Shown here in pieces: positions 31,742 to 49,674 of a stretch of 64,000 nt of DNA. The DNA is from Georgenia satyanarayanai. GTDB lineage: Bacteria; Actinomycetota; Actinomycetes; Actinomycetales; Actinomycetaceae. The DNA lies in the NCBI RefSeq assembly GCF_900116375.1, contig NZ_UETB01000001.1, positions 310,001 through 374,000 on the forward strand, in the 5' to 3' direction. The notes beneath the pieces are model-generated. The model saw only the letters and a list, made by a program, of their open reading frames with translations, did not search any database and was not told the DNA's origin. How positions within the stretch are numbered: the first letter of the stretch is position 1; every line of letters begins with the position of its first letter. The position numbers and the translations under genes were made by a program.

Positions 31742-31811
31742 TCCCTCACTCTGTCCGAGGGGGTCAACATTCACTCGGCACCAGGGGGTCAGTCTTCACG
31801 CGGCATCGACA

Positions 31812-32858: not shown

Positions 32859-32975
32859 CGTCGAGGTCCTCGGAGTGAACAGTTGCTTGGTCGCTACTGA
32901 TCATCGGGGACCTCGACCCCTACCCGCCCTCAGCTACCTCCGCGAGTCCCCTCCCCACCGGAAGTCCGAAGAGCC

Positions 32976-32983
32976 CTCATACG
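32976..32983 (+). repeat. 8-bp target duplication at right end of the ISL3 element
   Basis: CTCATACG, identical to 29309-29316; it lies 59 bases before the start of the small gene at 33042. Confidence 0.85.
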
Positions 32984-33041
32984 GGATGTGAAGGCGGCCG
33001 ATCCCTTGACGGCGGTGTGCCAGGTCGCGAAGCTACGCCGC

Positions 33042-33287
33042 ATGGCAGCCAAGACGGATCTCATGGACTGGGTGGTAGAAGCGCTCGAGCAGCTCGGCGG
33101 TACCGCAGGCGTGTTGGAGGTGTCCCGACAGGTCTGGCACAACCATGAGGATCAGCTGCGTGAGTCCGGCGACCTCTTCTACACCTGGCAGTACGACCTG
33201 CGGTGGGCTGCCACGAATCTGAGGAAAGCGGGGCGGTTGCAGCCGAGCTCTGGTCGCGGGGTTCGCGCGAACTGGACGCTCATCTGA
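33042..33287 (+). CDS. Small winged-helix-like protein at the edge of the insertion
   Basis: 81 residues from ATG 33042. Three helices (LMDWVVEALEQLGG, VLEVSRQVWHNHEDQL, WQYDLRWAATNLRKAGRL) and a final strand (GVRANWTLI) suggest a winged-helix or Mrr-N/HARE-HTH type fold. Such folds are common in defence loci as DNA-binding modules. No SD is visible; a TTGACG at 33006 would place a transcript start near the ATG, so the mRNA may be leaderless. ISL3 inserted just upstream and may have removed longer-range regulation. Function not recognised. Confidence 0.55.
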   Translation: MAAKTDLMDWVVEALEQLGGTAGVLEVSRQVWHNHEDQLRESGDLFYTWQYDLRWAATNLRKAGRLQPSSGRGVRANWTLI

Positions 33288-33788
33288 AGCACGCCTAGCG
33301 CTGCGCCCCTGTTCTTCAGTCGAGCGTGACGCCCGCGTAGGCGAGGCGGTGCTGAACCGTCGTCAGCCGTGCACGATCTCTCGGTGGTACCGGGGCCGTC
33401 CCTGCCTAAGGCCCCGCTGTACCGCTGCAGACTGCGACGGGAACGTCTCAACCGGAGCTCAGCGAGCAGCCCGGCGGCCGCGCGGAGCGGAGCGGGAGTG
33501 TCGCCACCGCCCACGGTGACGCCTGGCGGACAGCAGCCACCCCGAAGGTCGTACGGATGAATGGAAGCTGAGAACCGCCACCGACGGTGGCGGTAGCGGG
33601 GCGACGACCACGGATGCGGGGCACTGGTACTTGGTTACCGCGTGCACCACTCCTTGCCTGTCTCCCGACAGGGCTCTGTTGAAAGGTAACGTTCGGGCCG
33701 TGGGCCGGTGGGAGCGCGGGGTGGTCGTGAGGGCAACACCACCTTGGTCATGATGGACTCAGGATCACGGTGTCTGGAGGATGTAGGC
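33288..33788. other. 500-bp gap without a supportable gene; contains one perfect hairpin
   Basis: No frame shows consistent G/C third positions. A perfect 9-bp stem with 3-base loop lies at 33574-33594 and may end transcripts arriving from the left. The regulatory region of the small-protein/methyltransferase operon must lie in the last ~100 bases; I see no clear promoter boxes. Confidence 0.5.
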
Positions 33789-34031
33789 GTGGCGCGTATC
33801 AGGGCTTTCTCTCCATCGGAGCAGGACATCCGTCCCCATCCGACTGAGGTCGACTGTGAGTACCGTGTCGTCGAAGGAGATGGGCGTCGCCTCCTACATC
33901 TCACGACCTTCGGCTCTGACGAGAGAGCTAGCCGGCCGAAATCCAGCCAGAGTCTTCAACTCGATGTCGAGAGGGCACGCGAACTGCTCGAGATCATCGA
34001 GACCGCGTTCCCTGAGCTCCGGCGTCCGTGA
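33789..34031 (+). CDS. Small protein coupled to a cytosine methyltransferase
   Basis: 80 residues from GTG 33789, with GGAGG eight bases upstream; an upstream ATG frame is not credible. The sequence VARIRAFSPSEQD, then TEVDCEYRVVEGDGRRLLHL and SQSLQLDVERARELLEII resembles small proteins I have seen in front of Dcm-type methyltransferases. No catalytic motif is present. Its stop overlaps the methyltransferase GTG by 4 bases, so the two are translated together. It might be a specificity, stability or regulatory partner. Confidence 0.7.
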   Translation: MARIRAFSPSEQDIRPHPTEVDCEYRVVEGDGRRLLHLTTFGSDERASRPKSSQSLQLDVERARELLEIIETAFPELRRP

Positions 34032-35212
34032 CTATCTCTCAGGGGACACCGCTCACCACCGCTTCGTTGTTCAGCGGGATCGCGGGTATCGAGTTGGGCC
34101 TCACGGCCGCAGGCGTTTCCCATACCACGTGGTTCTGTGAGCGATGGGAACCCGCGCGGGCGGTGCTCCGGGACAGGTTCCCCGAAGTTGAGGTCAAGGA
34201 CGATGTGACCAGCCTCGATGATTTCGGTGGTGCGTCGCTCGTCACGGCAGGCTTCCCATGCACGGACCTCAGTCAGGCCGGGCGTACCAGCGGACTGGAC
34301 GGGGTCAATTCGGGCCTCGTCATCGGCGTGCTGGAGAAGGTCGCCGGGCACCGTCCCGACTGGGTGCTCCTGGAGAACGTTCCGAACATGTTGCACCTTG
34401 GCCGCGGTGCGGCGATGGGTCGCATCATCGACAACTTCGAAGCCGCGGGATATACGTGGGCGTATAGGGTCGTCGACAGCAGGTTCACGGGGCTCGCCCA
34501 GCGTCGGCGTCGAGTGTTTCTGCTCGCCTCACGGGTGCAGGACCCGGCTCGTATACTCCTGGGCGAGGACAGCGGTTCAGCCCCCTCGCCTGACGTCGCC
34601 CGTGCATTCGGCTTCTCGTGGACGGAGGGCAACAGGGGCGTCGGTTGGGCGGTTGGGGCGACGCCTACGCTCAAGGGTGGTACGACCGTGAGAGTCGCGA
34701 GTCCGCCCGCTGTATGGCTCCCGCAGAAGGAAGTCGGATGGCAGATCGTGCGCCCTTCGATCGAAGCAGCCGAGGTGCTGCAAGGCTTCTCCCCGGGGTG
34801 GACAGCTCTGGCTCCCGAGCGCGACCGGTGGAAACTGATGGGAAACGCAGTGAGTGTCCCGGTTGCCCGTTGGCTGGGCGAGCGGCTCGCCCAGCGTGAG
34901 GGTCTCACGGAGCCGATGGAGGGTGGCGTCCTCCTGGTCGACGGGGACCGATGGCCCACGGCTGCGTACGGAACCCCTGACGGTAGACGATGGCGCGTCG
35001 AAGTTTCGGACTTTCCACGACTACCCCGTACTGAAGACTTGCAGGAGCTCGGCTCTCTCCTGGCCCGCCACGGCTCCGAGCCGCTATCTCTTCGTGCCAC
35101 CAAGGGCTTTCGTGATCGCCTGCTCAGGAGCAACCTGCGCTACGAGGGGGCTTTCATGGCCGCCTTGGACGCGCACGTTGATCACATGTCTTCCGGTCGC
35201 ACCACCTCGTAG
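34028..35212 (+). CDS. DNA (cytosine-5) methyltransferase
   Basis: 394 residues. Motif I is SLFSGIAGIELGL, motif IV is GFPCTDLSQAG with catalytic Cys 78, motif VI is ENVPNM, motif VIII is QRRRRVF and motif X is GNAVSVPVARW. The target-recognition region between VIII and X is short (about 100 residues), and a ~120-residue extension follows motif X. It should transfer a methyl group to C5 of cytosine in a motif that cannot be predicted. It is next to a Vsr gene (3' ends overlap by 31 bases) and to class 1 DISARM. C5 methylation is the chemistry of class 2 DISARM (DrmMII), but gene order and orientation here suggest a separate Dcm-Vsr unit. Confidence 0.9.
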   Translation: MTISQGTPLTTASLFSGIAGIELGLTAAGVSHTTWFCERWEPARAVLRDRFPEVEVKDDVTSLDDFGGASLVTAGFPCTDLSQAGRTSGLDGVNSGLVIGVLEKVAGHRPDWVLLENVPNMLHLGRGAAMGRIIDNFEAAGYTWAYRVVDSRFTGLAQRRRRVFLLASRVQDPARILLGEDSGSAPSPDVARAFGFSWTEGNRGVGWAVGATPTLKGGTTVRVASPPAVWLPQKEVGWQIVRPSIEAAEVLQGFSPGWTALAPERDRWKLMGNAVSVPVARWLGERLAQREGLTEPMEGGVLLVDGDRWPTAAYGTPDGRRWRVEVSDFPRLPRTEDLQELGSLLARHGSEPLSLRATKGFRDRLLRSNLRYEGAFMAALDAHVDHMSSGRTTS

Positions 35213-35619
35213 ATGTGCCGTGCGACCGTGTCGGGCGCCTCGTGTTCCCAGAATCGCAGCACCTTCCATCCAAGTTTCTCCAGTTGTGCGTTGGCCGAGG
35301 CATCGCGCGCCCGATTTGCCGCCAGTTTGTCCCGCCACCAGTCGGCGTTGGACCGGGGAAGCGTCCCGTGCTGCGGGCAGCCGTGCCAGAAGCACCCGTC
35401 GATGTACACGGCCACGCGTTTCCGGGTGAACGCGATGTCGATGGTCCGGCGCCGTTGACCAGGCACCGGCCACGCAACGCGGTACCTGAGACCCATGGCA
35501 TGGAGACGTTGTCTGATCGCTGTCTCGGGACCGTTGTCGCGGCGCCGCAGTGCAGCCATCCGGCGGGAGACTGCCGGACTCGACGCTCCGGGGTGTGCTC
35601 CTGGTCCAGAAGACTGCAT
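35182..35619 (-). CDS. vsr: Very short patch repair (Vsr) endonuclease
   Basis: 145 residues, normal Vsr length. Family motifs are MAALRRRDNGPETAIRQRLH, RRTIDIAFTRKRVAVYIDGC (the metal-binding Asp in DIAF), FWHGCPQHG (zinc-binding Cys/His), and LGWKVLRFWEHE. Vsr nicks next to T:G mismatches left by 5-methylcytosine deamination, which fits the convergent C5 methyltransferase; some Vsr-like enzymes in defence clusters act as restriction nucleases instead. It is divergent from drmD across 109 bases. Confidence 0.9.
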   Translation of the reverse strand: MQSSGPGAHPGASSPAVSRRMAALRRRDNGPETAIRQRLHAMGLRYRVAWPVPGQRRRTIDIAFTRKRVAVYIDGCFWHGCPQHGTLPRSNADWWRDKLAANRARDASANAQLEKLGWKVLRFWEHEAPDTVARHIYEVVRPEDM

Positions 35620-35728
35620 GTCCTCAGCATGCCGCGAGCTGTGATCGGTCGCGACGCGCCGATGTGTCGACGTGGATGCCAGTCGGAACCCGGGCGTTAT
35701 GGTGGCCCAAACGTGAGGAAGGGCATAA

Positions 35729-38700
35729 GTGCAGACGCAGCTCCCTGAAGCCGGCCAGATGGTGCATGTCCGAGGCGCTCAGTGGGTGGTGACGGACGTT
35801 GCCGCGCAGGCCCTTCCGCGTTCGTCCGCGGACGACGACGTCACCGAGATCCAGCATGCCGTCACTCTCCAGGCGATGGGTGAGGACGCCGCGGGGGATG
35901 AGTTGCGGGTCGTCTGGGAGATCGAGCCCGGACGCGCAGCCGTCACGGAACGCGGTCTCCCGCGACAGATCGACCCGGACCGCTTCGACCACCCGGGCAC
36001 GCTCGCGGCGTTCGTCGATGCGCTGCGCTGGGGGGCGGTCACCTCCGCCGACCCGGGGACCTATCAGGCCCCCTTCCGGTCTGGTGCCGCCGTCGAGCCG
36101 TACCAGCTGGAGCCGCTCCGGCGGGCGCTCTCGGCCCCGCGGACGAACCTGCTCCTCGCCGACGACGTGGGCCTCGGCAAGACGATCGAGGCCGGCCTCG
36201 TGATCCAGGAGCTACTCCTGCGGCACCGGGCTCGCTCTGTTGTCGTCGTGTGCCCAGCGGGCTTGGTGCTGAAGTGGCGCGACGAGATGCTCGAGAAGTT
36301 CGGGTTGTCCTTCGAGGTCGTGAGCTCGGAGACAATGAAGGACGTGCGCCGCCGGTACGGGGTGCACGCCAACCCGTTCGTGCTCTTCCCCCGCGTGATC
36401 GTATCGATGTCGTGGCTCCCCGGTCCTCGTGCCCAGCGCATGCTGCAGTCGGCGTTCGGCGCCGCCCGGCGGACCGGGCGTGATGGTCGGGTCTTCGACG
36501 TGCTCGTGGTGGACGAGGCGCACCACGTGGCCCCTTCGGCGCCGCAGCAGGCGGCCGGCCGTCGCGGTTACGCGGTCGACTCGCAGCGGACGGCCGCCGT
36601 GCGCGACCTCGCGCGGCGGTGCGAGCACCGGCTCTTCCTGTCCGCCACCCCGCACAACGGGTACGAGGAGTCGTTCACCGCGCTGCTGGAGATGATCGAC
36701 GAGCACCGATTCGCCCGTGGTGCCCAGATCGATCGGACGGCGCTCGCCGAGGTTGCGGTACGGCGGTTGAAGTCCGACGTGCCGGGCGATCGTTTCCGGC
36801 AGCGGCAGGTGCGGCCGCTGCCCGTCGAGGCCGCGGACGACGAAGCGGAGATGTACGACCGGTTGACCGCGCTGCTCAATAGGCGACGACGCGCGGCTGC
36901 GGGCGCACCAGCGCGTGCCGCTGACATCTCGGCGCTGCTGCTCAAGAAGCGGTTCCTGTCATCGCCCTGGGCCTTCGCGCGGACGGCCGCCGCCTACCTC
37001 GAAGCGCGTCGTGACGGTCGCGAGCCCGACCTGCCGGAGTTCGACGACCTGTGGGGTGATGCCGCGCCCGACGAGGAGGAGGGCCGTACCGCCCAGCCCG
37101 AGCTCGGTGCGCTCACCGACAGTCGCCGCGTGCTCGAGGATCTCCCGCCCCAGGACGTGGCGGACCTCGAAGCCCTCATCGCCTGGGGCCGTAGCTACGA
37201 GGCGCGGCCGGACTCCCGACTGACTGAGCTGGTGAGGCTCCTCGAGGGGGAGATCCGCCCGACGGGGACGTGGTCCAACGAGCGTGTCGTCGTATTCACG
37301 GAGTACGTGGACACCCTCGAGTGGATCGAGCGCGTCCTGCGCACCGCTGGCTACGACTCCGACCGACTCGCCGTCATCCACGGGCAGACGCCGGCCGACG
37401 AGCGCGAGGACATCCGTCTGCGCTTCAATGCCGACCCGTCGGAGCACCCGGTGCGGGTCCTGCTGGCGACCGACGCCGCCGGCGAGGGAATCGATCTGCA
37501 GCGCTACTGCCACCGGCTCGTGAACTTCGACGTGCCGTTCAACCCCAATCGGCTCGAGCAGCGCATCGGCCGCATCGACCGTTACGGGCAGACGGAGACG
37601 CCCGTGGCGTGGCACTTCGCACCGGTCAGCGGGCGGTCCGCGCTGGACCGTGACGTCGACCTCCTGCGGCGGCTGCTGGACAAGATGCAGCGGGTGCGCA
37701 CCGACCTCGGCTCGGCGAACGACGTCCTGGCGCCGGACCTCGAGGAGGAGCTCATGGGGCGTCGTCGGCGGGCAGCCCGGCCGGCTCGCGACGAGTCGGC
37801 TCGCGCGGTGACCGACATGCTGGCGGGTGATCGCCGGATGTCCGCCGAGCTCACCCGCATCACCGAGGGTCTCGACGACGTCCGCCAGCGGCTGCACCTG
37901 CACCCCGCGAACGTCCACCGGGTGGTCGACACGGCTCTGAGCCTCGCAGGGCAGCCGACCCTGGAGCGCGTCGGGGACGTCGACACCGACGCCCCCGTCT
38001 TCGCCACGCCGACGGCGATGGCACGTACCTGGGCGCTCGCGGTGCAGGACCTGGACGACCCGCTCACCTCCGAGCGTCGGCACCTGACTTTCGACGAGGA
38101 GGCGGGTCGCGGACGCCAGGACCTCGTGCACGCTCACCTCGGCCACCCGCTCGTCCGGTTGGCGACCCGGGCGCTCCGTCAGGAGCTGTGGTCACCGCAC
38201 CCGTCCGTCCAACGCGTGACCGCGGTCGTCGTACCCGGGCTCCGGGACTCGTTCGCAGCGGCCGTCGCGCGTCTGGTGCTGGTCGGTGGCAGCGGTGTCC
38301 GCCTGCACGAGGAGGTCTTCCTCGCAGGGACCCGGCTGCGACGACGCCAGGACCTCGGTGAGGAGCTCTCGGAGGACCTCCTCGCCACGACGCTCGACGG
38401 GCACGACCTGCGCTCGCCGCGGCCCGAGGTGTTGCGCGCGCTCGCGGCTCGGTGGAACGAGAGCGCGGAGGACGCGCTCCGTGCACGCGTGGAGCGTGCG
38501 GTCGAGGTCCGGGCCGCCCGGCGGCTCGGCGAGCTGGAGGAGGCGCTCCGGGATCGTCGTGAGGCCGACCTCGAACGGGTCGAGGGCACCTTCGCGCGCT
38601 TCCGGGAGACACTCCAGAGGTCCGTCGCCGCGATGGAGCGGGCAGCCCGGGAGGTCGAGGAGTCGCTCTTCGAGCTGGAGGGGTCCGCGCGGCAACGGCG

Positions 38701-38866
38701 TCGCGACATCGAGGAGGTGCGACGCCGGCTGGACGTTCTCGATGACGAGCTGGACCGGGAACGACACGCTGTCGATTCCCGGTACGAGGAGTCGCAGCAC
38801 CACGCACTGACCGGGGCGCTCGTGTTCGCACTGACGCCCGCCGACGCCGAGGGGAGCTTCGCATGA
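35729..38866 (+). CDS. drmD: DISARM class 1 helicase DrmD (SNF2-like)
   Basis: 1,045 residues from GTG 35729, GAGGAAGGG about 8 bases upstream. It is an SF2/SNF2-type helicase: Walker A DVGLGKTIEAG (GKT at ~150-152), DEAH at 262-265, SATPHNG, and in the second half VVVFTEYVDTLEWI, LLATDAAGEGIDLQ and QRIGRIDRYGQ. The C-terminal ~130 residues are rich in Arg/Glu and predict a long coiled coil. DrmD is the class-defining subunit of class 1 DISARM. It is first in an operon of five genes, each overlapping the next by 4 bases. Confidence 0.88.
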   Translation: MQTQLPEAGQMVHVRGAQWVVTDVAAQALPRSSADDDVTEIQHAVTLQAMGEDAAGDELRVVWEIEPGRAAVTERGLPRQIDPDRFDHPGTLAAFVDALRWGAVTSADPGTYQAPFRSGAAVEPYQLEPLRRALSAPRTNLLLADDVGLGKTIEAGLVIQELLLRHRARSVVVVCPAGLVLKWRDEMLEKFGLSFEVVSSETMKDVRRRYGVHANPFVLFPRVIVSMSWLPGPRAQRMLQSAFGAARRTGRDGRVFDVLVVDEAHHVAPSAPQQAAGRRGYAVDSQRTAAVRDLARRCEHRLFLSATPHNGYEESFTALLEMIDEHRFARGAQIDRTALAEVAVRRLKSDVPGDRFRQRQVRPLPVEAADDEAEMYDRLTALLNRRRRAAAGAPARAADISALLLKKRFLSSPWAFARTAAAYLEARRDGREPDLPEFDDLWGDAAPDEEEGRTAQPELGALTDSRRVLEDLPPQDVADLEALIAWGRSYEARPDSRLTELVRLLEGEIRPTGTWSNERVVVFTEYVDTLEWIERVLRTAGYDSDRLAVIHGQTPADEREDIRLRFNADPSEHPVRVLLATDAAGEGIDLQRYCHRLVNFDVPFNPNRLEQRIGRIDRYGQTETPVAWHFAPVSGRSALDRDVDLLRRLLDKMQRVRTDLGSANDVLAPDLEEELMGRRRRAARPARDESARAVTDMLAGDRRMSAELTRITEGLDDVRQRLHLHPANVHRVVDTALSLAGQPTLERVGDVDTDAPVFATPTAMARTWALAVQDLDDPLTSERRHLTFDEEAGRGRQDLVHAHLGHPLVRLATRALRQELWSPHPSVQRVTAVVVPGLRDSFAAAVARLVLVGGSGVRLHEEVFLAGTRLRRRQDLGEELSEDLLATTLDGHDLRSPRPEVLRALAARWNESAEDALRARVERAVEVRAARRLGELEEALRDRREADLERVEGTFARFRETLQRSVAAMERAAREVEESLFELEGSARQRRRDIEEVRRRLDVLDDELDRERHAVDSRYEESQHHALTGALVFALTPADAEGSFA

Positions 38867-41800
38867 GCCCGCGACCCGGATACCGGCCGAGGCGGCCGGA
38901 CGACGTCTTCGCGTGGCTCGACCTCGTCGTCGTCGACGGGCCGTTCCTCGCGCGCCCGGCGGTCAAGGCGCAGTACCGCGACGGTCTGCCCCGCCCAGAC
39001 GCGACTGTCGACCAGGTGGGTGAGTCGTTCACGGAGGGCTTCCGCCTGTGGGAGCGGGCCTGGACCACGTGGGTGCGGTCGGCACGAGACGACTCCGCGA
39101 CCGCCGCGTACCTCACCGAGCGTGACGCCTGGGTGACGACGATGACCCGCCAGGTGTTGGAGTGGGACGGGTACATCGTCGAGGCGTCGCCGGACCTGCA
39201 GGCAGTGTCGCTGGACGGTGAGCGCTCCGTGCGCCCGACGGCGGTCCTCCGGACCGCTGAGGAGGACGAAGCGCTGCTGCTGGTAGTCGACCCGACCGAT
39301 GACCTCGCGGCACCGGGGGCTGACGGATGGACGGCCACCGCGATCGACCGAGGCGCCGCGCTCCTCCGTGCGAGCCGGTCCAGCGGTTTGAGCGGCATCC
39401 CTGTGGCCCTCGTGACCGACGGCCGTTGGTGGGCCCTCGTGTGGATCAGTGACCAGGGGGCGGTGGGTTCTGGCACATTTGACGGTGCACTCTTCCGGGA
39501 GGAGCCCGACCTCAGAGCGGCCTTCTGGGCGCTGGCGCGACTCACCTCCGTGGCGGGCGGGGCACCCGAACGCCGCCTGCCCGCGCTGCTGCGTGACTCG
39601 GTCGCCAGCACCGAGGAAATCACCGACCAGCTCGGCCAGCAGGTCCGCGCGGCCGTCGAGCTGTTGGTGCAGTCGTTCTCGGAGTCGCACCTCCACGCGC
39701 TCGCAGCAGGGGAGACGTCGCCGCTCCCGGAGGATGGACACGTCGCCTACGACGCGGCCGTGACGGTCATGATGCGCGTCGTCTTCCTGCTGTTCGCGGA
39801 GGCGAATGAGCTCCTCCCCGACAGCGTGCTGTATCGCGACGCCTACGCGATCTCGGACGTCGGGGAACGCCTCGACGCCCGCCGACGCGCTGCCGTCGCC
39901 GCGGACGGTGAGGAACTGCTTGAGGGGGCGTTCGACACGTGGCACCGCTTGCTCGCGACGAGCAGCGCGCTGTACGAGGGCGCGACGTTCGAGGACCTGC
40001 GCATGCCGGCGTACGGCGGATCGCTGTTCGACCCTGAGCGCTTCGCGTGGCTGCTCGCCACCGACCCCACGACCGGGCGTCTCCGGGTGGTGGTCGACGA
40101 CCGCGTGATGCTGCACGTGCTGCGTGCCGTCCAGCAGGTACGCATCGGGAACGAGGCGCGAGCGGTCTCCTTCCGGGACCTCGACGTCGAGCAGATCGGC
40201 TACGTCTACGAGGGTCTGCTCGGGTACTCCGCCCGGTTCACCGAGCCCGACGAGACGATCATCGGATTGTCGGGCCCGCAGGACGGCGCCGAGCCGGAGA
40301 TCCCGCTCGAGGTGCTGCACCAGCTGTCCGACGACGCGGGCGAGGACCCCGCCGCTTTCGCAGCGGCGCTGGTCGCCTGGCTCAAAGAGGACCAGCCCGG
40401 TGCGCGCGCGGGCACGGTCCGTCAGATCGCCAAGGCGTACGAGACCAGCGGCACCGTCGAGGCGCAGGACGAGGGCCGGCGGGTGCTGCGCCCCGTCGTA
40501 CGGGACACGGGCTTGCTCGACGAGCTCGTCGGGTACATCCACCTGATCCGCCGCGACCTGCGCGGGCTGCCCTACGTCGTGCTCGGTGGTGGGCTCGTTG
40601 TCGTCGAGACCCGGTCCCGCGCCAACTCCGGGACGCACTACACGCCGCGGGCGCTCGCGGAGGAGGTCGTCCTCCACGCCCTCGAGCCGCTCGTGTACCA
40701 GCCGGGGCCGCTGCAGACGGCGGACACGAGCGAGTGGAAGCTCATCCCGTCATCGCAGATCCTCGACCTCAAGGTCGCGGACATCGCCGTGGGCTCCGGG
40801 GCCTTCCTCGTCGCTGCCGCCCGCTACCTCGGCGGGAAGCTGCTCGAAGCGTGGGACGCCGAGGGCATCACCCGCGAGGACGTCAGCGCCGAGCAGCGAC
40901 GCCGACGGGAGATCGAAGCCCGGCGGGAGATCGTCGCGCACTGCCTCTACGGTGCGGACATCAACCCCATGGCTGTCGAGATGTGCAAGCTCTCCCTGTG
41001 GCTGGTGTCGCTCGACCGGGACAAGCCCTTCTCCTTCGTCGACGACAAGATCTTCCGCGGCAACTCACTGCTCGGTCTGACGGAGCTCCGGCAGCTGCGC
41101 GGGCTCCACATCGACCCGTCGCCTGCCCGCCTGCGAAACCCGGGCTTCACGGTGGACGTCGACCTCGCCATCCAGCGCGCGACCGAGATCCGCGGGCAGC
41201 TCGCCACGGCCGTGTCCGACGGCGACGCGATGCGGACGACGCACGCCAAGCGGCAGCTCATGAGGCAGCTCGACCAGCAGCTGGAGGAGCTCCGGACCGT
41301 CGCCGACGGGATCGTGGCCGCGGGGCTGGCGGTCGGCGGCAAGCCTGGGAAGCTAACTGATGCCACTTACGAGAACCTGTCGCTCGCCCTCATGCGGGCC
41401 TCGCTCGGTGACGATGCAGCGTTGACGGGAATCATCGAGCGTGGCCTGACTCCGATGGTTCCGACCGACTACAACAAGTGGCGGCCGTTGCACTGGATCC
41501 TTGAGGTCCCCGACGTGATGTTCGGGCACGGTGGGTTTGATGCCGTGGTAGGCAACCCGCCGTTCCTCGGAGGCAAGAAGCTCACCGGAGCGATGGGTGA
41601 CAATGTGCGCGACTGGTTCGTCCATCAGATCGCCGGTGGGACGAGGGGGAGCGCCGACCTCGTCGCCTACTTCTTCCTGCGAGGGTTTGGCCTCCTCCAT
41701 CCCGAGAGGGGGCAGCTCGGCCTGATCGCGACCAACACCATTGCGCAAGGTGACACCCGTGAGGTCGGCCTGGACCGGCTCGCAGAGGGCGGTCTCACGT

Positions 41801-42975
41801 TGCGGCGCGCCATCCAGAGTGCGCCGTGGCCGGCGCGCAGCGCCAATCTGGAGTACGCCGGGGTGTGGGGTAGCCGAGCACCCCTCGACGCCGCCGCTGA
41901 GCGTGTCTCCGACGGGAATCCGGTCCGCGCGGTGTCGACCCTTCTCGAGCCGCAGGGGCGGGCAGAAGGGGCGCCCGTGCGTTTGGCGGAGAATGCTGGT
42001 ATCGCGTTCGTTGGGAGTTATGTCCTTGGGAAGGGCTTCGTCCTCACAGGCGAGGAGGCGACCGCCATGTTCGCGGCCGACCCGCGCAACCGTGACGTCG
42101 TCTTTCCGTACCTCAACGGGGAAGATCTCAATTCGCGCCCCGATATGGCAGCGTCGCGTTGGGTGATCAACTTCTTCGACTGGTCAGAAGAGCGCGCGGC
42201 GACGTATAAGGCTCCGTACGCTTGGATTCGCGATCGGGTGATGCCCGAGCGTACCCGCCGGAATCCCGATGGGTCCTTCGTTCTCCGAAAGCCGTTGCCT
42301 GAGCGATGGTGGATATACGCAGATAAGCGGCCCCGCTTGTACCGAGAAATTGCCACACTTTCGGAGATTCTCGTTATTGCGAGGGTCGGTAAGGTCGTTA
42401 TGCCTGCAAGGGTTCCTACTGGGCAGGTTTGTAGCGACGCGACTGTCGTTTTTGCCACTGACGACTTTGGTATCCAAGCCGTTCTCTCGTCGTCATTCCA
42501 CCAGATCTGGGCGATCGCCTACGGGTCGACTCTCGGAACTGTCGCGCGTTACACCCCTTCGGACGTCTTTGAGAGCTTTCCGAGGCCCGTTTCCACGTCA
42601 GCCCTCGAGGAATCTGGTCGAGTTCTTGATGGTGAGGTTCGAAGCCTAATGAAGAGGAGGGGGCTTGGTTTCACAAAGCTGTACAATCGCGTGAATGATC
42701 CGGAAGTCGTTGGTGACCCGGATGTTCGGCATCTTCGAGATATTCATGTGGCGCTCGACGAGGCTGTGCTCGATGCATACGGATGGCATGACGTGCAGCT
42801 CCGTCACGGTTTCCATTCGTACCGGCAGGCGCAGAGATTCACAATCGACCCAGCCGCCCGCGTCGAAATACTCGACAGATTGCTCGAGGAGAACCAGCAA
42901 CGTGCGGGCGGCTCCGGCCAATCTGAGATCGCCGGAGCCTTATCCGGTAGCATGAGAGCGAGGGCGCGCGCGTGA
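38863..42975 (+). CDS. drmMI: DISARM adenine methyltransferase DrmMI (Eco57I/PglX-like)
   Basis: 1,370 residues. The N6-adenine methyltransferase core has motif I near residue 643 (ADIAVGSGAFLVAAARYL), an acidic follow-up in YGADINPMAVEMCKLSLWL, and the catalytic motif VGNPPFLGG near 897. It should modify host DNA so that DISARM does not attack it. The N-terminal ~500 residues are specific to this family. From about base 42000 to the end, base composition falls and T/A-ending codons become common, unlike the rest of the gene; this is the region expected to hold target recognition. ATG overlaps the drmD stop. Confidence 0.88.
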   Translation: MSPRPGYRPRRPDDVFAWLDLVVVDGPFLARPAVKAQYRDGLPRPDATVDQVGESFTEGFRLWERAWTTWVRSARDDSATAAYLTERDAWVTTMTRQVLEWDGYIVEASPDLQAVSLDGERSVRPTAVLRTAEEDEALLLVVDPTDDLAAPGADGWTATAIDRGAALLRASRSSGLSGIPVALVTDGRWWALVWISDQGAVGSGTFDGALFREEPDLRAAFWALARLTSVAGGAPERRLPALLRDSVASTEEITDQLGQQVRAAVELLVQSFSESHLHALAAGETSPLPEDGHVAYDAAVTVMMRVVFLLFAEANELLPDSVLYRDAYAISDVGERLDARRRAAVAADGEELLEGAFDTWHRLLATSSALYEGATFEDLRMPAYGGSLFDPERFAWLLATDPTTGRLRVVVDDRVMLHVLRAVQQVRIGNEARAVSFRDLDVEQIGYVYEGLLGYSARFTEPDETIIGLSGPQDGAEPEIPLEVLHQLSDDAGEDPAAFAAALVAWLKEDQPGARAGTVRQIAKAYETSGTVEAQDEGRRVLRPVVRDTGLLDELVGYIHLIRRDLRGLPYVVLGGGLVVVETRSRANSGTHYTPRALAEEVVLHALEPLVYQPGPLQTADTSEWKLIPSSQILDLKVADIAVGSGAFLVAAARYLGGKLLEAWDAEGITREDVSAEQRRRREIEARREIVAHCLYGADINPMAVEMCKLSLWLVSLDRDKPFSFVDDKIFRGNSLLGLTELRQLRGLHIDPSPARLRNPGFTVDVDLAIQRATEIRGQLATAVSDGDAMRTTHAKRQLMRQLDQQLEELRTVADGIVAAGLAVGGKPGKLTDATYENLSLALMRASLGDDAALTGIIERGLTPMVPTDYNKWRPLHWILEVPDVMFGHGGFDAVVGNPPFLGGKKLTGAMGDNVRDWFVHQIAGGTRGSADLVAYFFLRGFGLLHPERGQLGLIATNTIAQGDTREVGLDRLAEGGLTLRRAIQSAPWPARSANLEYAGVWGSRAPLDAAAERVSDGNPVRAVSTLLEPQGRAEGAPVRLAENAGIAFVGSYVLGKGFVLTGEEATAMFAADPRNRDVVFPYLNGEDLNSRPDMAASRWVINFFDWSEERAATYKAPYAWIRDRVMPERTRRNPDGSFVLRKPLPERWWIYADKRPRLYREIATLSEILVIARVGKVVMPARVPTGQVCSDATVVFATDDFGIQAVLSSSFHQIWAIAYGSTLGTVARYTPSDVFESFPRPVSTSALEESGRVLDGEVRSLMKRRGLGFTKLYNRVNDPEVVGDPDVRHLRDIHVALDEAVLDAYGWHDVQLRHGFHSYRQAQRFTIDPAARVEILDRLLEENQQRAGGSGQSEIAGALSGSMRARARA

Positions 42976-45900
42976 CATCGTCGAGACACGTTCGGGACGG
43001 AGTGCACCGGCTCCTGGCGGCGGATCTGGTTGGGCCGTGGGGCGGTCCCGCTGAGACGGTCATCGGCAACCCTCGCGGAAGGTACCTCGCGGGTGCCCTG
43101 GCGCCTGTGAAGGTCGAGGGGACCGGTCATCCCACAGCACCGGACCAGATCCTGGTGACGGACGAGATCGCTGACCTTCGATCAGGAGACGACGCGATTC
43201 CCGTTCCCGACGGACGCGGCACCGACGGCGTCCCCGAGGTCGACGACGGGGAGATCTCCGACAGCGGCACCCCGGAGGAGTCGGAGGACCGAGGGCCCGC
43301 GTCCCAGCTCATCGCGCCGTCGTCGATGGGTCTGCGCTTCCGCGTGAGTGCGGGGGAACCGGGTCTCGTGCTCATCGCGCGGTGGGGCACGTACGTACCG
43401 CGTCGTGAGGCTGACGACAATGGTCGGGTGCGGACACTGTACGACCGCACGCCGCACGAGCACCGCGTCGTCCTGACCTCGGACCGCATCACCGCCGGTG
43501 CGGTGATCGACGAGCCCGTGCTGGTCGAGAACGGCGCGGTACAGGTGTCGGTGAGTGTGGACGTCCTTGCGGGAGACGGGGAGACGCTCGTCGCCGAGGT
43601 GGCCCTGCAGAATCGCCGCATCACGGATGGCGCCCTGCCCCCCAAGCTGTGGCTCTTCCAGGCCGAGCTCGAGGTCGTGGCCGCCGACGGGTCGGCAGCG
43701 TTCCTGCCCATCCACGATCCGCTAAACGCGCTCGCACCCGGTCTCGACAGCGAGGAGCAGCGCCTTGAGCTGCTCTACCGGGATCGCCTCGAGTTCGCGG
43801 TCGGCCGTACGTGCTCGGCCACGTGGACATGCGCTGATCCCGAGACGACGGACGGCGAGTGGGTCCGCGACCTCGTGGAGGGCGCGCGCCGCGCGCACCG
43901 GGTCCGCACCACCTGGTTGCCGACCGCCGAGGTGCCGCAGACGGTGGCGCCCGCCGTCCCTGGCGCCGTTGTGTCGATGGATCGCCTCGGCAGCGCCCCG
44001 CTCGAGGCCGTCGTTGCCGGCCTCCGTCCGATGGTGGACGGCTACTGCTCATGGCTGGTCAATCGGCGCGACGAGGTCGCCGACCTCCCGGCCCACTTGC
44101 AGGAGATCGCGGACGAGGCGGTCGAGGACGCCGAGGGTGTGGCCGACCGCTTGCAGGCCGGTCTCGCACTCTTGGCCGACCCCGACGTGTTCCGCGCCTT
44201 CCAGTTCATGAACCGGGTCATGGCGGACCAGCGCGTCCACAGCCAGGTCGCGCAGCTCCGGTCCGAGAGCGCTGACGTGACCATCGCCGAGGCGACGGAT
44301 CAGGTCATGGCGAAGGACGAGCTTGCGCGAGCATCGTGGCGGCCGTTTCAGCTTGGGTTCATCCTCATGCAGCTCCGCAGCCTCGCCGACCCGGCGTCCC
44401 CGCTGCGCAGCGGGGACGCCGCGCAGGCCGAGCTGCTCTTCTTCCCCACTGGTGGCGGTAAGACCGAGGCGTATCTCGGGCTCGCCGCGTTCGCCTTCGC
44501 GATGCGGCGACTCCAGGGCGAGGTCCCCTCCCCGGACGGCCCCCTCGACGGTCGTGACGGCGTCGCGGTCCTCATGCGCTACACGTTGCGACTGCTCACG
44601 ACGCAACAGTTCCAGCGCGCCACGGCGCTCGTCTGCGCGGCGGAGCTCGAGCGGCGCCGCGACCCCGAAACCTGGGGCACCGAGCCCTTCCGCATCGGCC
44701 TGTGGGTGGGGACCAGCGTTAGCCCCAAGTCCGTCACCGAGGCGCGTGCGCAGGTGGAGGACGCGCGGGGCGCCGACGGGAAGGCGTACGGCGTCACGGT
44801 CTTGCAGCTGCAGCGCTGCCCCTGGTGCGGTTCGCGGATCAGCCCCAAGCAGCACATCCGGTACGACGACGTGCGCCGACGCGTCCTCGTCCACTGCGGG
44901 GCCAAGCTCGGCACCGAGTGCCCGTTCGCCGAGGGCGGGCTCGTCGAGGACGGCCTCCCCGTGCTCACCACGGATGAGGAGATCTACCGGCACCCGCCCA
45001 CGTACCTCCTCGCGACCGTCGACAAGTTCGCGCGGATCGCTCGTGAGGGGCAGACGGCGCACCTCTTCGGCCATGTCGCGCAGCGGTGCCCTCGTCACGG
45101 CTACGTCCACCCGGATACCCCGGACGAGGTGTGCAACCGCACGAGCCACAACCGCAAGGGCTCTGCCCCCAAGGTCACCGTCACAGCGGTCGGCCGCCTA
45201 CGCCCGCCGGACCTCATCATCCAGGACGAGCTGCACCTCATCACGGGCGCGCTCGGCACCGCTGTCGGGCTGTTCGAGGTCGCCGTCGACACGCTCTGCA
45301 GCTGGCAGTACGGACCTGACGCCGCGACCGCGGCCGCCATCCGGCCCCTGGTCGTCGCGTCGACGGCGACCAGCCGCAACGCGCTCGGGCAGGTGCGCCG
45401 GCTCTACGGGCGTGGCGTCGAGATTTTCCCGCCCCAGGTGCTCGACGTGCGCGACACGTACTTCTCGGCCGAGGTCGCGATCAGCGAGAAGAGTCCCGGC
45501 CGGCGCTACGTCGGGGTGTGCGCGCACGGCGCACGCCTGACGCTCGCCGAGATCCGCGTGTCGGAGATCCTCCTCCTCGCGGGCCAGCGTCTCCTCGACG
45601 AGCACGGCGAGGCGGCCGACCCGTACATGACCCTCGTCGGCTACTTCTCGGCGACCCGCGAGCTCGCCGGCATGCGGCGGTATCTCGACGACGACGTCAC
45701 GACACGGATCACCAACCCGGACCGCACGAGCGGCTACGCCCCGCGCGGACGGTTCGGGCTCGAGGTCGGCGAGCTCACGTCCCGCATCTCTTCGACGGAG
45801 ATCACCGCGACGCTCGACCGGCTCGCCGTGACGTTCGACCCGCACTTCGACAGCACGAGCGCGCACGCGCGCATGGTCCAGGCCGCACGCGACGGGATGA

Positions 45901-46670
45901 AGGAGCCGGGCCGACCCGGAGACCGCCCGTACGACGTGGTGCTCGCGACGTCGATGCTGCAGGTGGGCGTCGACGTCGGACGCCTCGGGCTCATGCTCAT
46001 CGTCGGGCAGCCGAAGAACACGGCGGAGTACATCCAGGCGTCGTCACGCGTCGGGCGGGTGGCCTCACGCCCCGGGTTGGTCGTCACGCTCGCGAACCGG
46101 GCGCGCCCGCGCGACATGGCGCACTACGAGCAGTTCGAGCACGACCACCGGACGTTCTACGCCCATGTCGAGGCGTTGTCCGTCACGCCGTTCTCGGACT
46201 CCTCGCTCGAACGCGGCCTCACCGGCGTCCTCGTCTCCGTCGCGCGGGTGCTTGACGTGACCGCGTCGCCCTCCCTGTCACCGCAGACCGGGGCCAGCGC
46301 CGTCGCCTCCCGGTACGCCACGGTGGAGCACCTCATCGACGTCATCGCGCAGCGGGCGGCGGCAGCCGGAGCCGACGAGCTCGTCGACGCGATCCGGGAG
46401 AAGCTCCAGCGGCGCCTCGAGATCTGGTACGCGAGAGCCACTGCCAACCCCACCACGGTCTACGACAAGCGAGGTAGTGCACCGGGCCTGCTGAAGAGCC
46501 CCGAGGACGAGACGATCCTCGGCGAGGACGCCTACCTCCGCGTCGCCAACTCGATGCGGGAGGTGCAGCCGGAGATCAACCTCGTGGTGCGCTCCGTGCA
46601 GGACAAGGTGACCGACGTCGAACCCGTCGACGCGCCAGCCTGGGAGTTCCCCCTGGAGGTGGGACAGTGA
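42972..46670 (+). CDS. drmA: DISARM helicase DrmA
   Basis: 1,232 residues. Walker A is FFPTGGGKTEAYLGLAAFAF (about residues 490-509), a zinc-type insert CPWCGSRISPKQH lies near 616, and the DEAD-box equivalent is QDELHLITGALGT (~750). Helicase-C motifs include VGVDVGRLGLMLIVGQPKNT and SRVGRVASRPGLVVTLANRA (~1023). DrmA is one of the three DISARM core proteins and pairs with DrmB in DNA binding and blocking of phage DNA. GTG start overlaps the drmMI stop (GTGA). Confidence 0.9.
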   Translation: MTSSRHVRDGVHRLLAADLVGPWGGPAETVIGNPRGRYLAGALAPVKVEGTGHPTAPDQILVTDEIADLRSGDDAIPVPDGRGTDGVPEVDDGEISDSGTPEESEDRGPASQLIAPSSMGLRFRVSAGEPGLVLIARWGTYVPRREADDNGRVRTLYDRTPHEHRVVLTSDRITAGAVIDEPVLVENGAVQVSVSVDVLAGDGETLVAEVALQNRRITDGALPPKLWLFQAELEVVAADGSAAFLPIHDPLNALAPGLDSEEQRLELLYRDRLEFAVGRTCSATWTCADPETTDGEWVRDLVEGARRAHRVRTTWLPTAEVPQTVAPAVPGAVVSMDRLGSAPLEAVVAGLRPMVDGYCSWLVNRRDEVADLPAHLQEIADEAVEDAEGVADRLQAGLALLADPDVFRAFQFMNRVMADQRVHSQVAQLRSESADVTIAEATDQVMAKDELARASWRPFQLGFILMQLRSLADPASPLRSGDAAQAELLFFPTGGGKTEAYLGLAAFAFAMRRLQGEVPSPDGPLDGRDGVAVLMRYTLRLLTTQQFQRATALVCAAELERRRDPETWGTEPFRIGLWVGTSVSPKSVTEARAQVEDARGADGKAYGVTVLQLQRCPWCGSRISPKQHIRYDDVRRRVLVHCGAKLGTECPFAEGGLVEDGLPVLTTDEEIYRHPPTYLLATVDKFARIAREGQTAHLFGHVAQRCPRHGYVHPDTPDEVCNRTSHNRKGSAPKVTVTAVGRLRPPDLIIQDELHLITGALGTAVGLFEVAVDTLCSWQYGPDAATAAAIRPLVVASTATSRNALGQVRRLYGRGVEIFPPQVLDVRDTYFSAEVAISEKSPGRRYVGVCAHGARLTLAEIRVSEILLLAGQRLLDEHGEAADPYMTLVGYFSATRELAGMRRYLDDDVTTRITNPDRTSGYAPRGRFGLEVGELTSRISSTEITATLDRLAVTFDPHFDSTSAHARMVQAARDGMKEPGRPGDRPYDVVLATSMLQVGVDVGRLGLMLIVGQPKNTAEYIQASSRVGRVASRPGLVVTLANRARPRDMAHYEQFEHDHRTFYAHVEALSVTPFSDSSLERGLTGVLVSVARVLDVTASPSLSPQTGASAVASRYATVEHLIDVIAQRAAAAGADELVDAIREKLQRRLEIWYARATANPTTVYDKRGSAPGLLKSPEDETILGEDAYLRVANSMREVQPEINLVVRSVQDKVTDVEPVDAPAWEFPLEVGQ

Positions 46671-48718
46671 CAGAGGAGACGCCCGAGACCCCGGCAGAGA
46701 CTGCCTACGTCGTTGAGAACGCGGTGCTCGACCCGTACGCGCACACCGAGGACGTCGCACCCAAGAACTACGGACGCATCGGCTCCATGCGTCCCACGGC
46801 ATTGCTGTACACCGGAGGGATCGGCGCGACGGTCGACCTGCCGCACGTCGCCGTCATGCCGCAGGGACTCGACGCGTGGGAGCTCGCCTACCAGCGGCTC
46901 GGCAAGGTCTTCCAGGTCTCCGAACCGCGCCTGGTCGAGGCGGTCAAGGCGCAGATCGGACGCCAGGTCACCGAGCTGCGTCGGCCCCCGCGCGAAGAGA
47001 CCGGGCCGGACGGGTACTCCACCATCGGCGTGCCGGCCGCGGTGTTCCCCCGGTGGTTACGGTGCACCGGCTGTGACATTGTCGCGCCGTTCGACGGACA
47101 GGGTGGCACCTTCACCTTCGTCAACACGATCAAGCGCCGGCCGGACAAGGCACGCTTCGAGCACGAGGGCTGCCGCGGACGCAAGGGCACCGCCAAGCCG
47201 CGGCGCAGCCCGGCCGTGCCCGCCCGATACCTGGTCGCGTGCCTCGACGGGCACCTCGACGAGTTCCCCTACTGGGCGTACGTGCACCGCGCCCAGGGCG
47301 CGGGGTGGACGTGCTCGAAGATGGCGGGCATGCCGAACCCCCGGACACAGCTGCGGATGCTCGAGTGGCGCAGCAACCTCGGCCCCGAGGTCCACATCCA
47401 CTGCGTCACGTGCGACGAGCGGCGCTCCATGCGCGAGCTCACCGGGACCGCCGGCGCCGACCGTATGCCTCGGTGCCGAGGGCGACACCCCCATCTCGGA
47501 ACCTTCGAGAAGTGCCAGGCCGAGACGCGGTTCATGCTGCTCGGCGCCGCGAATCAGTGGTTCCCCGCCACCGTGAGCCTCCTCGTGGTGCCGGAGAGCG
47601 TCGAGCTCACCGTCACCGACGTCGCCGCACGCCTCCAGGGAGTCCCCGCTGAGCAGCGTGCGATGGTCACCTCGGAGGCCGTGGTCCCGATGTTCAAAGC
47701 GTTCGTGCAGCAGAGCGCGGGCCTGGATTTCGCGGACGTGCCGGACGACGTCGTCATGGCGGCGATCACGATGCTCGCGCAGTGGAATCTGCCCGACACG
47801 GGGCGGACCACGCCCTACACGGCGGTCGAGCTGAGGCTCCCCGAATGGCGCACGCTCGTCCGGCCCAAGGACTTCGCGAAGCACGCCCGGCAGAGCGACT
47901 TCCGCATCCGGGACGTCGCGCCCCCCGCGGCGCTCGATCCGGTGATTGGGACCGTTGCGGCGGTCGACCGGCTGAAGAAGGTGAACGCCTTCGTCGGGTT
48001 CACACGTGTCGACTCGTTCGATCGCATCGACGACATTGCTCGGCTCGCCCCAATCTCGCGGCGACGCCCGCGCTGGGTGCCGGCGACCGAGGACCACGGC
48101 GAGGGGGTGTTCATCCGGCTCCGCGAGGATGTCGTGGGCCCCTGGGAGCAGCGCGTCATCCCGACGTCGCTCTGGAAGGCGCACGAGCGTGCGCACGAGC
48201 TCAACGTCAAGCGTCGCACAAGCGCGTCCGCTCCCGTGAACGCGGCCGAGCGGTTCGAGCCGCCGCGGTTCTGGGCCGTCCATACGCTCGCTCACCTGCT
48301 CATTCGCCAGATGGCGATGGACTCCGGGTACGGGTCCGCGTCGCTGACCGAGCGCATCTATGCATGGCGATCGGACGAGGATCGCGAGGCTGCTGCTGGC
48401 TTCCTGATCTCCACGACGTCGCCGGACAGCGAGGGCACCCTTGGTGGCCTCGTCGAGCTCTCTGACCCGGAGAGACTGGGAAACCTCGTCATGCGAGCGT
48501 TGCACAAGGCGTCCCGCTGCTCGTCCGACCCCGTCTGCTCGCACCGCACACCCGGCCCTGACGAGGACTTCCTCCACGGAGCCGCATGTCACTTCTGCGT
48601 CTTCAACTCGGAGACGTCCTGCGAGAACGCTAACCGCTTCCTCGACCGGCGCCTCCTGCGAACGCTGTTTCCTGGCCAGGGGGTCGATGGGTTTCTCGAC
48701 GTCGTGTCGCTCGGATGA
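46667..48718 (+). CDS. drmB: DISARM protein DrmB (DUF1998)
   Basis: 683 residues. Zinc-type clusters occur near residue 132 (CTGCD) and 245 (CVTCDERR). The C-terminal DUF1998 region contains HTLAHLLIRQMAMDSGYGSA, and late cysteines in SSDPVCSHRTPG and CHFCVFNSETSCENANRFLD. It forms the core complex with DrmA. GTG start overlaps the drmA stop by 4 bases. No nuclease motif is visible. Confidence 0.9.
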   Translation: MTEETPETPAETAYVVENAVLDPYAHTEDVAPKNYGRIGSMRPTALLYTGGIGATVDLPHVAVMPQGLDAWELAYQRLGKVFQVSEPRLVEAVKAQIGRQVTELRRPPREETGPDGYSTIGVPAAVFPRWLRCTGCDIVAPFDGQGGTFTFVNTIKRRPDKARFEHEGCRGRKGTAKPRRSPAVPARYLVACLDGHLDEFPYWAYVHRAQGAGWTCSKMAGMPNPRTQLRMLEWRSNLGPEVHIHCVTCDERRSMRELTGTAGADRMPRCRGRHPHLGTFEKCQAETRFMLLGAANQWFPATVSLLVVPESVELTVTDVAARLQGVPAEQRAMVTSEAVVPMFKAFVQQSAGLDFADVPDDVVMAAITMLAQWNLPDTGRTTPYTAVELRLPEWRTLVRPKDFAKHARQSDFRIRDVAPPAALDPVIGTVAAVDRLKKVNAFVGFTRVDSFDRIDDIARLAPISRRRPRWVPATEDHGEGVFIRLREDVVGPWEQRVIPTSLWKAHERAHELNVKRRTSASAPVNAAERFEPPRFWAVHTLAHLLIRQMAMDSGYGSASLTERIYAWRSDEDREAAAGFLISTTSPDSEGTLGGLVELSDPERLGNLVMRALHKASRCSSDPVCSHRTPGPDEDFLHGAACHFCVFNSETSCENANRFLDRRLLRTLFPGQGVDGFLDVVSLG

Positions 48719-49437
48719 CCGACGACCTCGCCGAGCTCGTCGGACTGCTGACACCTACTGAATTGAGACGTGTCGCGGCCAGCCTGGAGGCAACCGGGCG
48801 GCCGCGTCGCGCGGCGCGCGAGATAGCACCCGAGCGCGCGGCGTCGGTTGAGCCCGTGCTCGGCGCCGTCGCAGCTTCCTTCGGTAACGCGCGCGCGCTC
48901 GCCGCCGCGCTCCGAGCGGTCGCTACGGCGGCAGAAGACCGGCCCGAGCCTCCAGTAGTGGTCTGGAGCGGTCCGCTCCTTGAGGGTGACTCCGTTCGGA
49001 CGACCGAGGCCATCGTCCGGCTCATAGACGATGCTGAGGAGAGTGTTCTGGCTTCCACCTACTCAGGGTCCCCAGGTGCGCCGTTCGTTCAGGCGCTCCG
49101 CCGAGCGGCCCAGCGGAAGGTAGCGATAACGCTTGTGGTGGATGTCGTTATGCAGGGGGCTACAGCGGAGCTGCTGCGCCGGGCGGTGCCGCGGGCCACC
49201 GTGTACGGGTACCACCACCATGTTGGGGAGCAGGCAGGCCTGCAGCATTCCAAAGTCTTGGTGATCGATGGGCGATTTACTTTCGTGACCAGTGCAAACT
49301 TGTCTATCGCTGCCGTCGAACGGCACCTGGAAGCAGGGGTGCTCCTTACTGACGTCGCGGTTGCAGCCGGTGTCTCGCGTCGTATAGCCGACCTCGCGGC
49401 TGCCGGACATCTGAAGGCACTTCACCCCTCCGTCTGA
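48715..49437 (+). CDS. drmC: DISARM phospholipase D-fold protein DrmC
   Basis: 240 residues with one HKD motif, HSKVLVID (His 178, Lys 180, Asp 185), followed by TSANLS; PLD-fold nucleases of this size act as dimers. The first ~90 residues are helical and Ala-rich. DrmC is the third conserved core gene of DISARM and was reported as less critical than DrmA/DrmB. It ends the operon, with a 237-base gene-free gap before telA. Confidence 0.88.
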   Translation: MTDDLAELVGLLTPTELRRVAASLEATGRPRRAAREIAPERAASVEPVLGAVAASFGNARALAAALRAVATAAEDRPEPPVVVWSGPLLEGDSVRTTEAIVRLIDDAEESVLASTYSGSPGAPFVQALRRAAQRKVAITLVVDVVMQGATAELLRRAVPRATVYGYHHHVGEQAGLQHSKVLVIDGRFTFVTSANLSIAAVERHLEAGVLLTDVAVAAGVSRRIADLAAAGHLKALHPSV

Positions 49438-49674
49438 TGCTCAGTCCGCGGAGCCCTACGCAACGACGGTTGAGACACCCATGGAGGCGTCGGCGCGCTA
49501 GCCAGTAGTGACGCTGCCTGTCGTGACCCAGACGCGCAGCGTTGCTCCGAAGAGGCCACGTCGGCCCTGGCGTGGCCTCGCACCGCGCGACAGTGCGTTG
49601 GTTGTTCGTGGACGCATTCGCGATCGACTTTGAGACAATCGGAGCAGACCCCGAGCGCCCGAGGAGTGCACCGC

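What the first reader, a model, noticed from the sequence alone, without database searches (positions are those of the whole stretch)
35729..49437. Complete class 1 DISARM operon with every junction overlapping by 4 bases
The sequence shows, in order, a SNF2-type helicase, an Eco57I-like adenine methyltransferase (NPPF motif), a GGGKT helicase, a DUF1998 protein and a single-HKD PLD protein. This is the gene set described for class 1 DISARM (drmD, drmMI, drmA, drmB, drmC). All four junctions are ATGA or GTGA overlaps, so the five proteins are translationally coupled. No gene is broken, so the system is probably active.
Basis: partly seen in the sequence, partly recalled or inferred. Interest (0 to 1): 0.8.

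Follow-up and report, generated by a model that had tools for sequence, protein, structure and literature searches.

The report
Class 1 DISARM with swapped methyltransferase half
This bacterium carries a complete and ordinary anti-phage DISARM operon, but comparison with relatives suggests that the part of its DNA-marking enzyme that chooses the target sequence is swapped between strains while the main effector proteins stay almost unchanged.

Summary
In detail: five intact + strand genes, 35729-49437, with four 4-base overlaps. The reading as class 1 DISARM is supported. NCBIfam cut-offs are passed for DrmD, short-form DrmA, DrmB and DrmC; PADLOC's best model for the methyltransferase is DrmMI. 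As a system it is ordinary, and 4-base overlaps are common in it.

Three things were added. (1) DrmMI is a mosaic. Against Cellulomonas sp. B6, DrmD, DrmA, DrmB and DrmMI 1-750 are 94-97% identical, but DrmMI 820-1370 is 49%; silent-site identity falls from 0.75 to 0.30, and GC3 within the window gene from 0.90 to 0.72. The target-recognition segment is disproportionately diverged in 18 of 26 close pairs, in 8 of 8 measurable clusters. I read this as horizontal exchange of the specificity part; tree tests alone were not significant. (2) A cytosine methyltransferase and a Vsr gene lie directly upstream, as in two Cellulomonas and one Blastococcus locus. (3) The island (about 25.9-49.6 kb) occupies a hotspot beside a telA-like gene that holds other defence genes in congeners.

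Activity cannot be shown here.

The parts
35729..38866 (+). drmD, SNF2-like helicase, 1045 aa
   Evidence: NF038317 1165.7 bits (cut-off 610); PADLOC DrmD 1203 bits
38863..42975 (+). drmMI, adenine methyltransferase, 1370 aa, mosaic
   Evidence: PADLOC DrmMI 1505.7 bits; Pfam Eco57I 65.4 (cut-off 25.3); GSGAF and NPPF
41200..42975 (+). 3' part of drmMI (from about aa 780) that differs from the nearest relatives; divergence and lower GC3 run on into about the first 100-150 codons of drmA
   Evidence: identity, silent sites, GC3
41962..42612 (+). target-recognition segment of DrmMI, aa 1034-1250 (limits approximate)
   Evidence: alignment to MmeI 5hr4; sub-threshold Pfam MmeI_TRD aa 1056-1242; exchange confined to aa 1100-1250 in L043/L044 and L040/L041
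42972..46670 (+). drmA, SF2 (YprA-type) helicase, short form, 1232 aa
   Evidence: NF038325 DrmAS 1282.4 bits (cut-off 950); aligns to Serratia DrmA 7s9v from residue 135
46667..48718 (+). drmB, DUF1998/MZB protein, 683 aa
   Evidence: NF038324 613 bits (cut-off 240); Pfam MZB
48715..49437 (+). drmC, phospholipase D-like nuclease with one HKD motif, 240 aa
   Evidence: NF038319 142.7 bits (cut-off 133)
34028..35212 (+). cytosine-5 DNA methyltransferase next to the operon; association, not shown to be part of DISARM
   Evidence: Pfam DNA_methylase 135 bits; PADLOC MTase_II 368 bits against DrmMII 52
35182..35619 (-). Vsr endonuclease gene, convergent with the methyltransferase
   Evidence: Pfam Vsr 49 bits, cut-off 27
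33708..34031 (+). small ORF overlapping the methyltransferase start by 4 bases; conserved in two Cellulomonas loci
   Evidence: no Pfam match
25908..49629 (.). variable island between conserved chromosomal flanks (approximate limits)

Best explanation
A complete class 1 DISARM operon. DrmMI marks host DNA with adenine methylation at a short motif. DrmAB, with DrmD and DrmC, acts against DNA lacking the mark; DrmAB is held inactive by a trigger loop until it meets unmodified DNA with a 5' overhang. That activity is taken from the family (PMC9142583) and not shown here. What the sequences show is that the motif-choosing part of DrmMI is diverged far beyond the rest of the operon, at silent sites too. 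The best reading is that it was replaced by recombination with a divergent version, while DrmD, DrmA and DrmB stayed 92-97% identical to the two nearest relatives. The inferred meaning is that DISARM changes the motif it treats as self by swapping this module, and that DrmD, DrmA and DrmB do not themselves read the motif.
For: Identity. Exchange: window against Cellulomonas sp. B6, DrmD 0.97, DrmMI 1-750 0.94, TRD 0.49, DrmA 0.94, DrmB 0.94; silent sites 0.75 to 0.30; GC3 0.904 to 0.716. TRD at least 0.15 below DrmMI 1-750 in 18 of 26 pairs with DrmD identity 0.80 or more, in 8 of 8 measurable clusters; control: the two halves of DrmA differ by 0.15 or more in 0 of 19 such pairs. In L043/L044 and L040/L041 only aa 1100-1250 is affected and silent-site identity recovers beyond it. 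For the window protein 18 of 37 outsiders are nearer in aa 900-1370 than L022 and 28 of 37 nearer than L028. MmeI is the best structural match.
Against: AU tests did not reject the backbone clades in the C-half: p 0.10, 0.08, 0.58, 0.27 for four clusters. 8 of 26 close pairs do not reach the 0.15 drop, and L040/L042 shows none; the threshold was chosen after seeing the data. For L029 0 of 38 and for L075 6 of 38 outsiders are nearer than the sister. No near-identical donor was found: best about 61%. DrmC could be compared over only 41-45 residues (80% identical) and has GC3 near 0.70, so it may not be part of the constant set. No methylation or phage data.
Confidence: 0.8

Rival explanations
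1. Plain class 1 DISARM whose methyltransferase C-terminus simply evolves fast, without exchange, under relaxed or diversifying selection.
For: The TRD is the least conserved part of such enzymes in general (BrxX, PMC11842806, passages); AU tests inconclusive; median TRD identity is low in every backbone bin.
Against: Silent sites of unchanged residues fall with the amino acids and recover beyond the segment in L043/L044 and L040/L041; GC3 changes within one gene; the drop is abrupt.
Confidence: 0.15
2. Composite system: the upstream cytosine methyltransferase and Vsr are working parts of this DISARM, giving two host marks (m6A and m5C).
For: Same neighbours in two Cellulomonas loci and one Blastococcus locus, and Vsr with a weak methyltransferase match in a proteobacterial bin; other C5 methyltransferases or Vsr beside class 1 operons; 'DrmMI and/or DrmMII' is stated in print (PMC9142583, passage).
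Against: Only 4 of 39 class 1 genomes have a C5 methyltransferase within 15 kb of drmD; position and protein family vary; the gene matches type II models far better than DrmMII; Cellulomonas B6 and C. iranensis share nearly the same Dcm (about 85-100% per window) but have different DrmMI halves.
Confidence: 0.15
3. Not DISARM but BREX, Dpd or ARMADA.
For: Shared helicase and methyltransferase superfamilies give secondary matches to BrxH, DpdE and PglX.
Against: DISARM models win by hundreds of bits and four NCBIfam cut-offs are passed.
Confidence: 0.01

Closest known systems
Class 1 DISARM (e.g. Serratia sp. SCBI, DrmAB structure 7s9v)
   Same: Gene set and order; DrmA aligns over aa 6-1206
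   Different: DrmA lacks the N-terminal 134 residues of the Serratia protein (short form, NF038325); cytosine methyltransferase and Vsr next door
Type IIL enzyme MmeI and BREX PglX/BrxX
   Same: Predicted fold of DrmMI aa 560-1370 is nearest MmeI 5hr4, with CamA and BrxX/PglX behind
   Different: Part of a DISARM operon; TM-score only 0.42 and large rmsd, so domain arrangement is not settled
[quoted passage not shown]
   Different: Seen here in DISARM, and often over the whole C-half rather than the TRD alone
ARMADA type I (PMC12458937, passages)
   Same: Shares a SNF2-type helicase, a PglX-like methyltransferase and a YprA-type helicase; an operon of this order lies at the same chromosomal site in congener G005
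   Different: YprA-type protein comes first and carries the DUF1998/MZB region; no separate drmB or drmC

Membership tests
Class 1 DISARM | drmD helicase | tested here: met
   1165.7 bits, cut-off 610
Class 1 DISARM | drmMI adenine methyltransferase | tested here: met
   PADLOC DrmMI 1505.7 bits, Eco57I and NPPF; no DrmMI model among the NCBIfam matches
Class 1 DISARM | drmA helicase | tested here: met
   DrmAS 1282.4, cut-off 950; the long-form model DrmAL is not reached (603.9 of 999)
Class 1 DISARM | drmB (DUF1998) | tested here: met
   613 bits, cut-off 240
Class 1 DISARM | drmC phospholipase D-like protein | tested here: met
   142.7 bits, cut-off 133, class I model
Class 1 DISARM | contiguous operon drmD-MI-A-B-C (order recalled; same in Serratia-type annotated loci) | tested here: met
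   same order in annotated plasmid loci
Class 1 DISARM | N-terminal EVE-like domain on DrmA (reported for class 1 in PMC12458937; not part of the original definition) | tested here: not met
   alignment to 7s9v starts at its residue 135
Class 1 DISARM | phage restriction and m6A methylation | not testable with these tools
   needs experiment
Class 2 DISARM | drmMII cytosine methyltransferase | tested here: not met
   upstream methyltransferase: MTase_II 368 bits, DrmMII 52 bits
Class 2 DISARM | drmE | not tested
   no targeted search; all five operon genes are otherwise assigned
BREX | PglX equivalog | tested here: not met
   34.5 bits, cut-off 500
Exchange of a specificity module | diverged segment inside a conserved backbone, at silent sites too | tested here: met
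Exchange of a specificity module | module tree rejects the backbone tree | tested here: inconclusive
   AU p 0.10, 0.08, 0.58, 0.27

The most novel reading that the evidence does not exclude
Class 1 DISARM is a constant effector machine with an interchangeable specificity cartridge: the DrmMI C-half, or its target-recognition segment alone, is horizontally exchanged, and the DrmA, DrmB and DrmD proteins are blind to the motif, so that DrmMI alone decides what counts as self.
Probability: 0.5. Interest if true: 0.6.

Novelty: new member of a known kind. Interest (0 to 1): 0.4.

Why it matters
How DISARM tells self from non-self is open: DrmAB binds DNA without sequence preference, yet methylation lowers its ATPase (PMC9142583, passages). 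Operons with near-identical DrmD, DrmA and DrmB but different DrmMI halves are natural chimeras. If their methylation motifs differ while these proteins are interchangeable, the proteins cannot be reading the motif. That makes the question directly testable with named strains.

Tried and rejected
BREX, Dpd or ARMADA as identity: rejected by scores. Upstream methyltransferase as DrmMII: rejected. 4-base overlaps as a distinguishing mark: rejected. Spare silent specificity cassettes: G000 has one match to the DrmMI C-half and four congeners (G001, G002, G004, G005) none; nine other DISARM genomes have one each. Near-identical donor of the C-half: not found, best about 60-61%. Functional co-swap of the DrmA N-terminus: not pursued; it adjoins the exchanged tract, and aa 51-100 vary in several other pairs too and overlap the region aligned to the trigger loop. 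DrmD in phage records: no match at E 1e-100. Flank gene of the Cellulomonas B6 locus in five genomes of the window's genus: no match and no positive control, nothing concluded. Small ORF 33708-34031: no Pfam match.

Rows dropped or incomplete: 65 loci entered; L117 is the same locus as L025; L036, L085 and L135 gave no DrmMI; L027, L111, L116 and L120 are cut or interrupted and gave partial or no TRD values; L037 is not DISARM and was left out. The tree used 31 rows and the quick method. The 0.80 and 0.15 thresholds were chosen after seeing the pairs.

Print check: seven searches listed nothing by title or abstract on exchange of DrmMI halves in DISARM or on Dcm-Vsr beside DISARM; only passages of five papers were seen (PMC9142583, PMC12458937, PMC7365801, PMC10273834, PMC11842806). 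Ofir et al. 2018 is not held and the Serratia class I preprint was not seen; both are known from recall and citations, so prior mention there cannot be excluded.
Full report
Identity. Profile scans give DISARM for all five: by NCBIfam DrmD 1165.7 bits (cut-off 610), short-form DrmA 1282.4 (950), DrmB 613 (240) and DrmC_I 142.7 (133); by PADLOC DrmMI 1505.7 bits. Motifs are intact. This is a complete class 1 DISARM operon. DrmA is found in 1 of 6 genomes of the genus; DrmD exceeds its cut-off in 8 of 200 genomes of the family; a close DrmD occurs in 12 of 297 genomes sampled from the order and 21 of 296 from the class. Each count includes the window's own genome. 20 plasmid records match DrmD at E 1e-100. 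The distribution is sporadic, as expected of a mobile defence system.

Island. The gene ending at 25907 and the telA-like gene starting near 49630 both align with three same-genus genomes (G001, G002, G005), where 12.2, 17.8 and 35.9 kb of other DNA lies between them (23.7 kb here). In G004 the telA side aligns and the left gene has no close match; G003 is 57% complete and was not examined. Contents there include: in G001 a type IV restriction enzyme; in G002 a type III methyltransferase and an Orf5/HEC-06-like protein; in G005 a type IV enzyme and an operon of DruE-like, DpdE-like and DrmMI-like proteins followed by an AAA protein and McrBC component; near telA in G004 a type II enzyme pair. 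The order of the first three G005 genes fits ARMADA type I as described in PMC12458937 (passages). The site behaves as a defence hotspot.

Neighbour module. Cellulomonas sp. B6 and C. iranensis have the same three genes before drmD; Blastococcus endophyticus has the methyltransferase and Vsr; a proteobacterial bin has Vsr and a weak methyltransferase match: 4 of 16 named loci. In 39 class 1 genomes a C5 methyltransferase lies within 15 kb of drmD on the same contig in 4 (G000, G434, G461, G734) and Vsr in 2 (G000, G734), read from positions. G734 is the same contig as named locus L025, and many other contigs are short. On plasmids, a C5 methyltransferase follows drmB in Nocardioides sp. JS614 and a Vsr gene follows drmC in Deinococcus sp. 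AJ005. I read the pair as a recurrent travelling companion, not as an established DISARM part.

DrmMI mosaic. Window against Cellulomonas sp. B6: DrmD 0.97, DrmA 0.94, DrmB 0.94, DrmMI 1-750 0.94, then 0.57 in aa 751-1033, 0.49 in 1034-1250 and 0.46 in the tail. The drop begins near aa 760-790 against B6 and near 820-850 against C. iranensis. At third positions of unchanged residues (mostly fourfold codon families) identity is 0.75 before and 0.30 after for B6, 0.65 and 0.27 for C. iranensis. GC3 of the window gene is 0.904 before and 0.716 after aa 800, with similar drops in both relatives. It reaches 0.61 at the end of drmMI and 0.77 in the first 150 codons of drmA before returning to about 0.9. 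DrmC, comparable over only 41-45 residues, is 80% identical and has GC3 near 0.70, so I do not count it in the constant set.

Replication and controls. From 64 distinct DrmD loci, 31 pairs have DrmD identity of at least 0.80 and form 10 clusters; the TRD could be measured in 26 pairs and 8 clusters. TRD identity is at least 0.15 below DrmMI 1-750 in 18 of 26 pairs, with at least one such pair in each of the 8 clusters; 8 pairs do not reach it, and L040/L042 shows no drop. As a control, the two halves of DrmA differ by that much in 0 of 19 pairs. Median TRD identity is 0.48 for 8 pairs at 0.90 or more in DrmMI 1-750 and 0.47 for 309 pairs at 0.5-0.6. In L043/L044 and L040/L041 the drop is confined to aa 1100-1250 and silent-site identity recovers after it (0.91, 0.53, 0.96 and 0.73, 0.40, 0.87). 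That segment falls within the stretch aligned to the MmeI C-terminal part (MmeI domain limits recalled) and a sub-threshold Pfam MmeI_TRD match. The predicted structure of aa 560-1370 (mean pLDDT 75) is nearest MmeI 5hr4, but TM-score is 0.42 and rmsd is large.

Against the reading. AU tests do not reject the backbone clades in the C-half (p 0.10, 0.08, 0.58, 0.27). In aa 900-1370, 18 of 37 outsiders are nearer to the window protein than L022 and 28 of 37 nearer than L028, but for L029 it is 0 of 38 and for L075 6 of 38. The AU results may reflect further mosaicism within the half, but that is conjecture. No close donor was found.

Mechanism. From PMC9142583 (passages): DrmAB binds unmodified 5'-overhang DNA without sequence preference, a trigger loop (176-232 in Serratia DrmA) blocks the site, and methylated DNA lowers ATPase activity. 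By alignment the loop falls at about aa 47-113 here. DrmA here starts where residue 135 of the Serratia protein aligns, so that protein's N-terminal region, where PMC12458937 places an EVE-like domain in class 1 (passage), is absent. DrmD, DrmA and DrmB at 92-97% beside a diverged specificity half suggest that they do not depend on the motif; this is inference.

Verdict. The apparent exchange of the methyltransferase's specificity part is the new observation: well supported by sequence comparison, not by trees, and without functional data.

Noticed in passing
26439-28766 +: Low-GC 775-aa protein with a GmrSD_N domain (105 bits) and a RAMA match just under its cut-off: a further restriction-like gene in the same island.
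   Followed up: partly
29685-32858 -: IS21 pair (istA/istB) and an ISL3 transposase between the GmrSD-like gene and the DISARM block; the IS21 part is 93% identical to DNA in the island of congener G002. PADLOC mislabels istB as DrmD.
   Followed up: partly
L060: 696-16492: In congener G005 the same chromosomal site holds an ARMADA type I-like operon (DruE-like helicase, DpdE-like SNF2 helicase, DrmMI-like methyltransferase) followed by an AAA protein and a McrBC component.
   Followed up: partly
L058: 1813-4874: Two adjacent genes (536 and 484 aa) in the hotspot of G002 without any PADLOC match at 1e-5.
   Followed up: no
33795-34028 +: 78-aa conserved core of a small protein that overlaps the cytosine methyltransferase start and is 79-81% identical in two Cellulomonas loci, without a Pfam match.
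   Followed up: partly
32988-33287 +: 99-aa ORF with a weak, sub-threshold Mrr N-terminal match.
   Followed up: no
L111: 17210-22019: In the Acidibrevibacterium plasmid DISARM, drmMI is annotated as two pieces on either side of an IS5 transposase.
   Followed up: no
36737-36829 +: ARAGORN reports a tRNA-Phe inside drmD, probably a false call.
   Followed up: no
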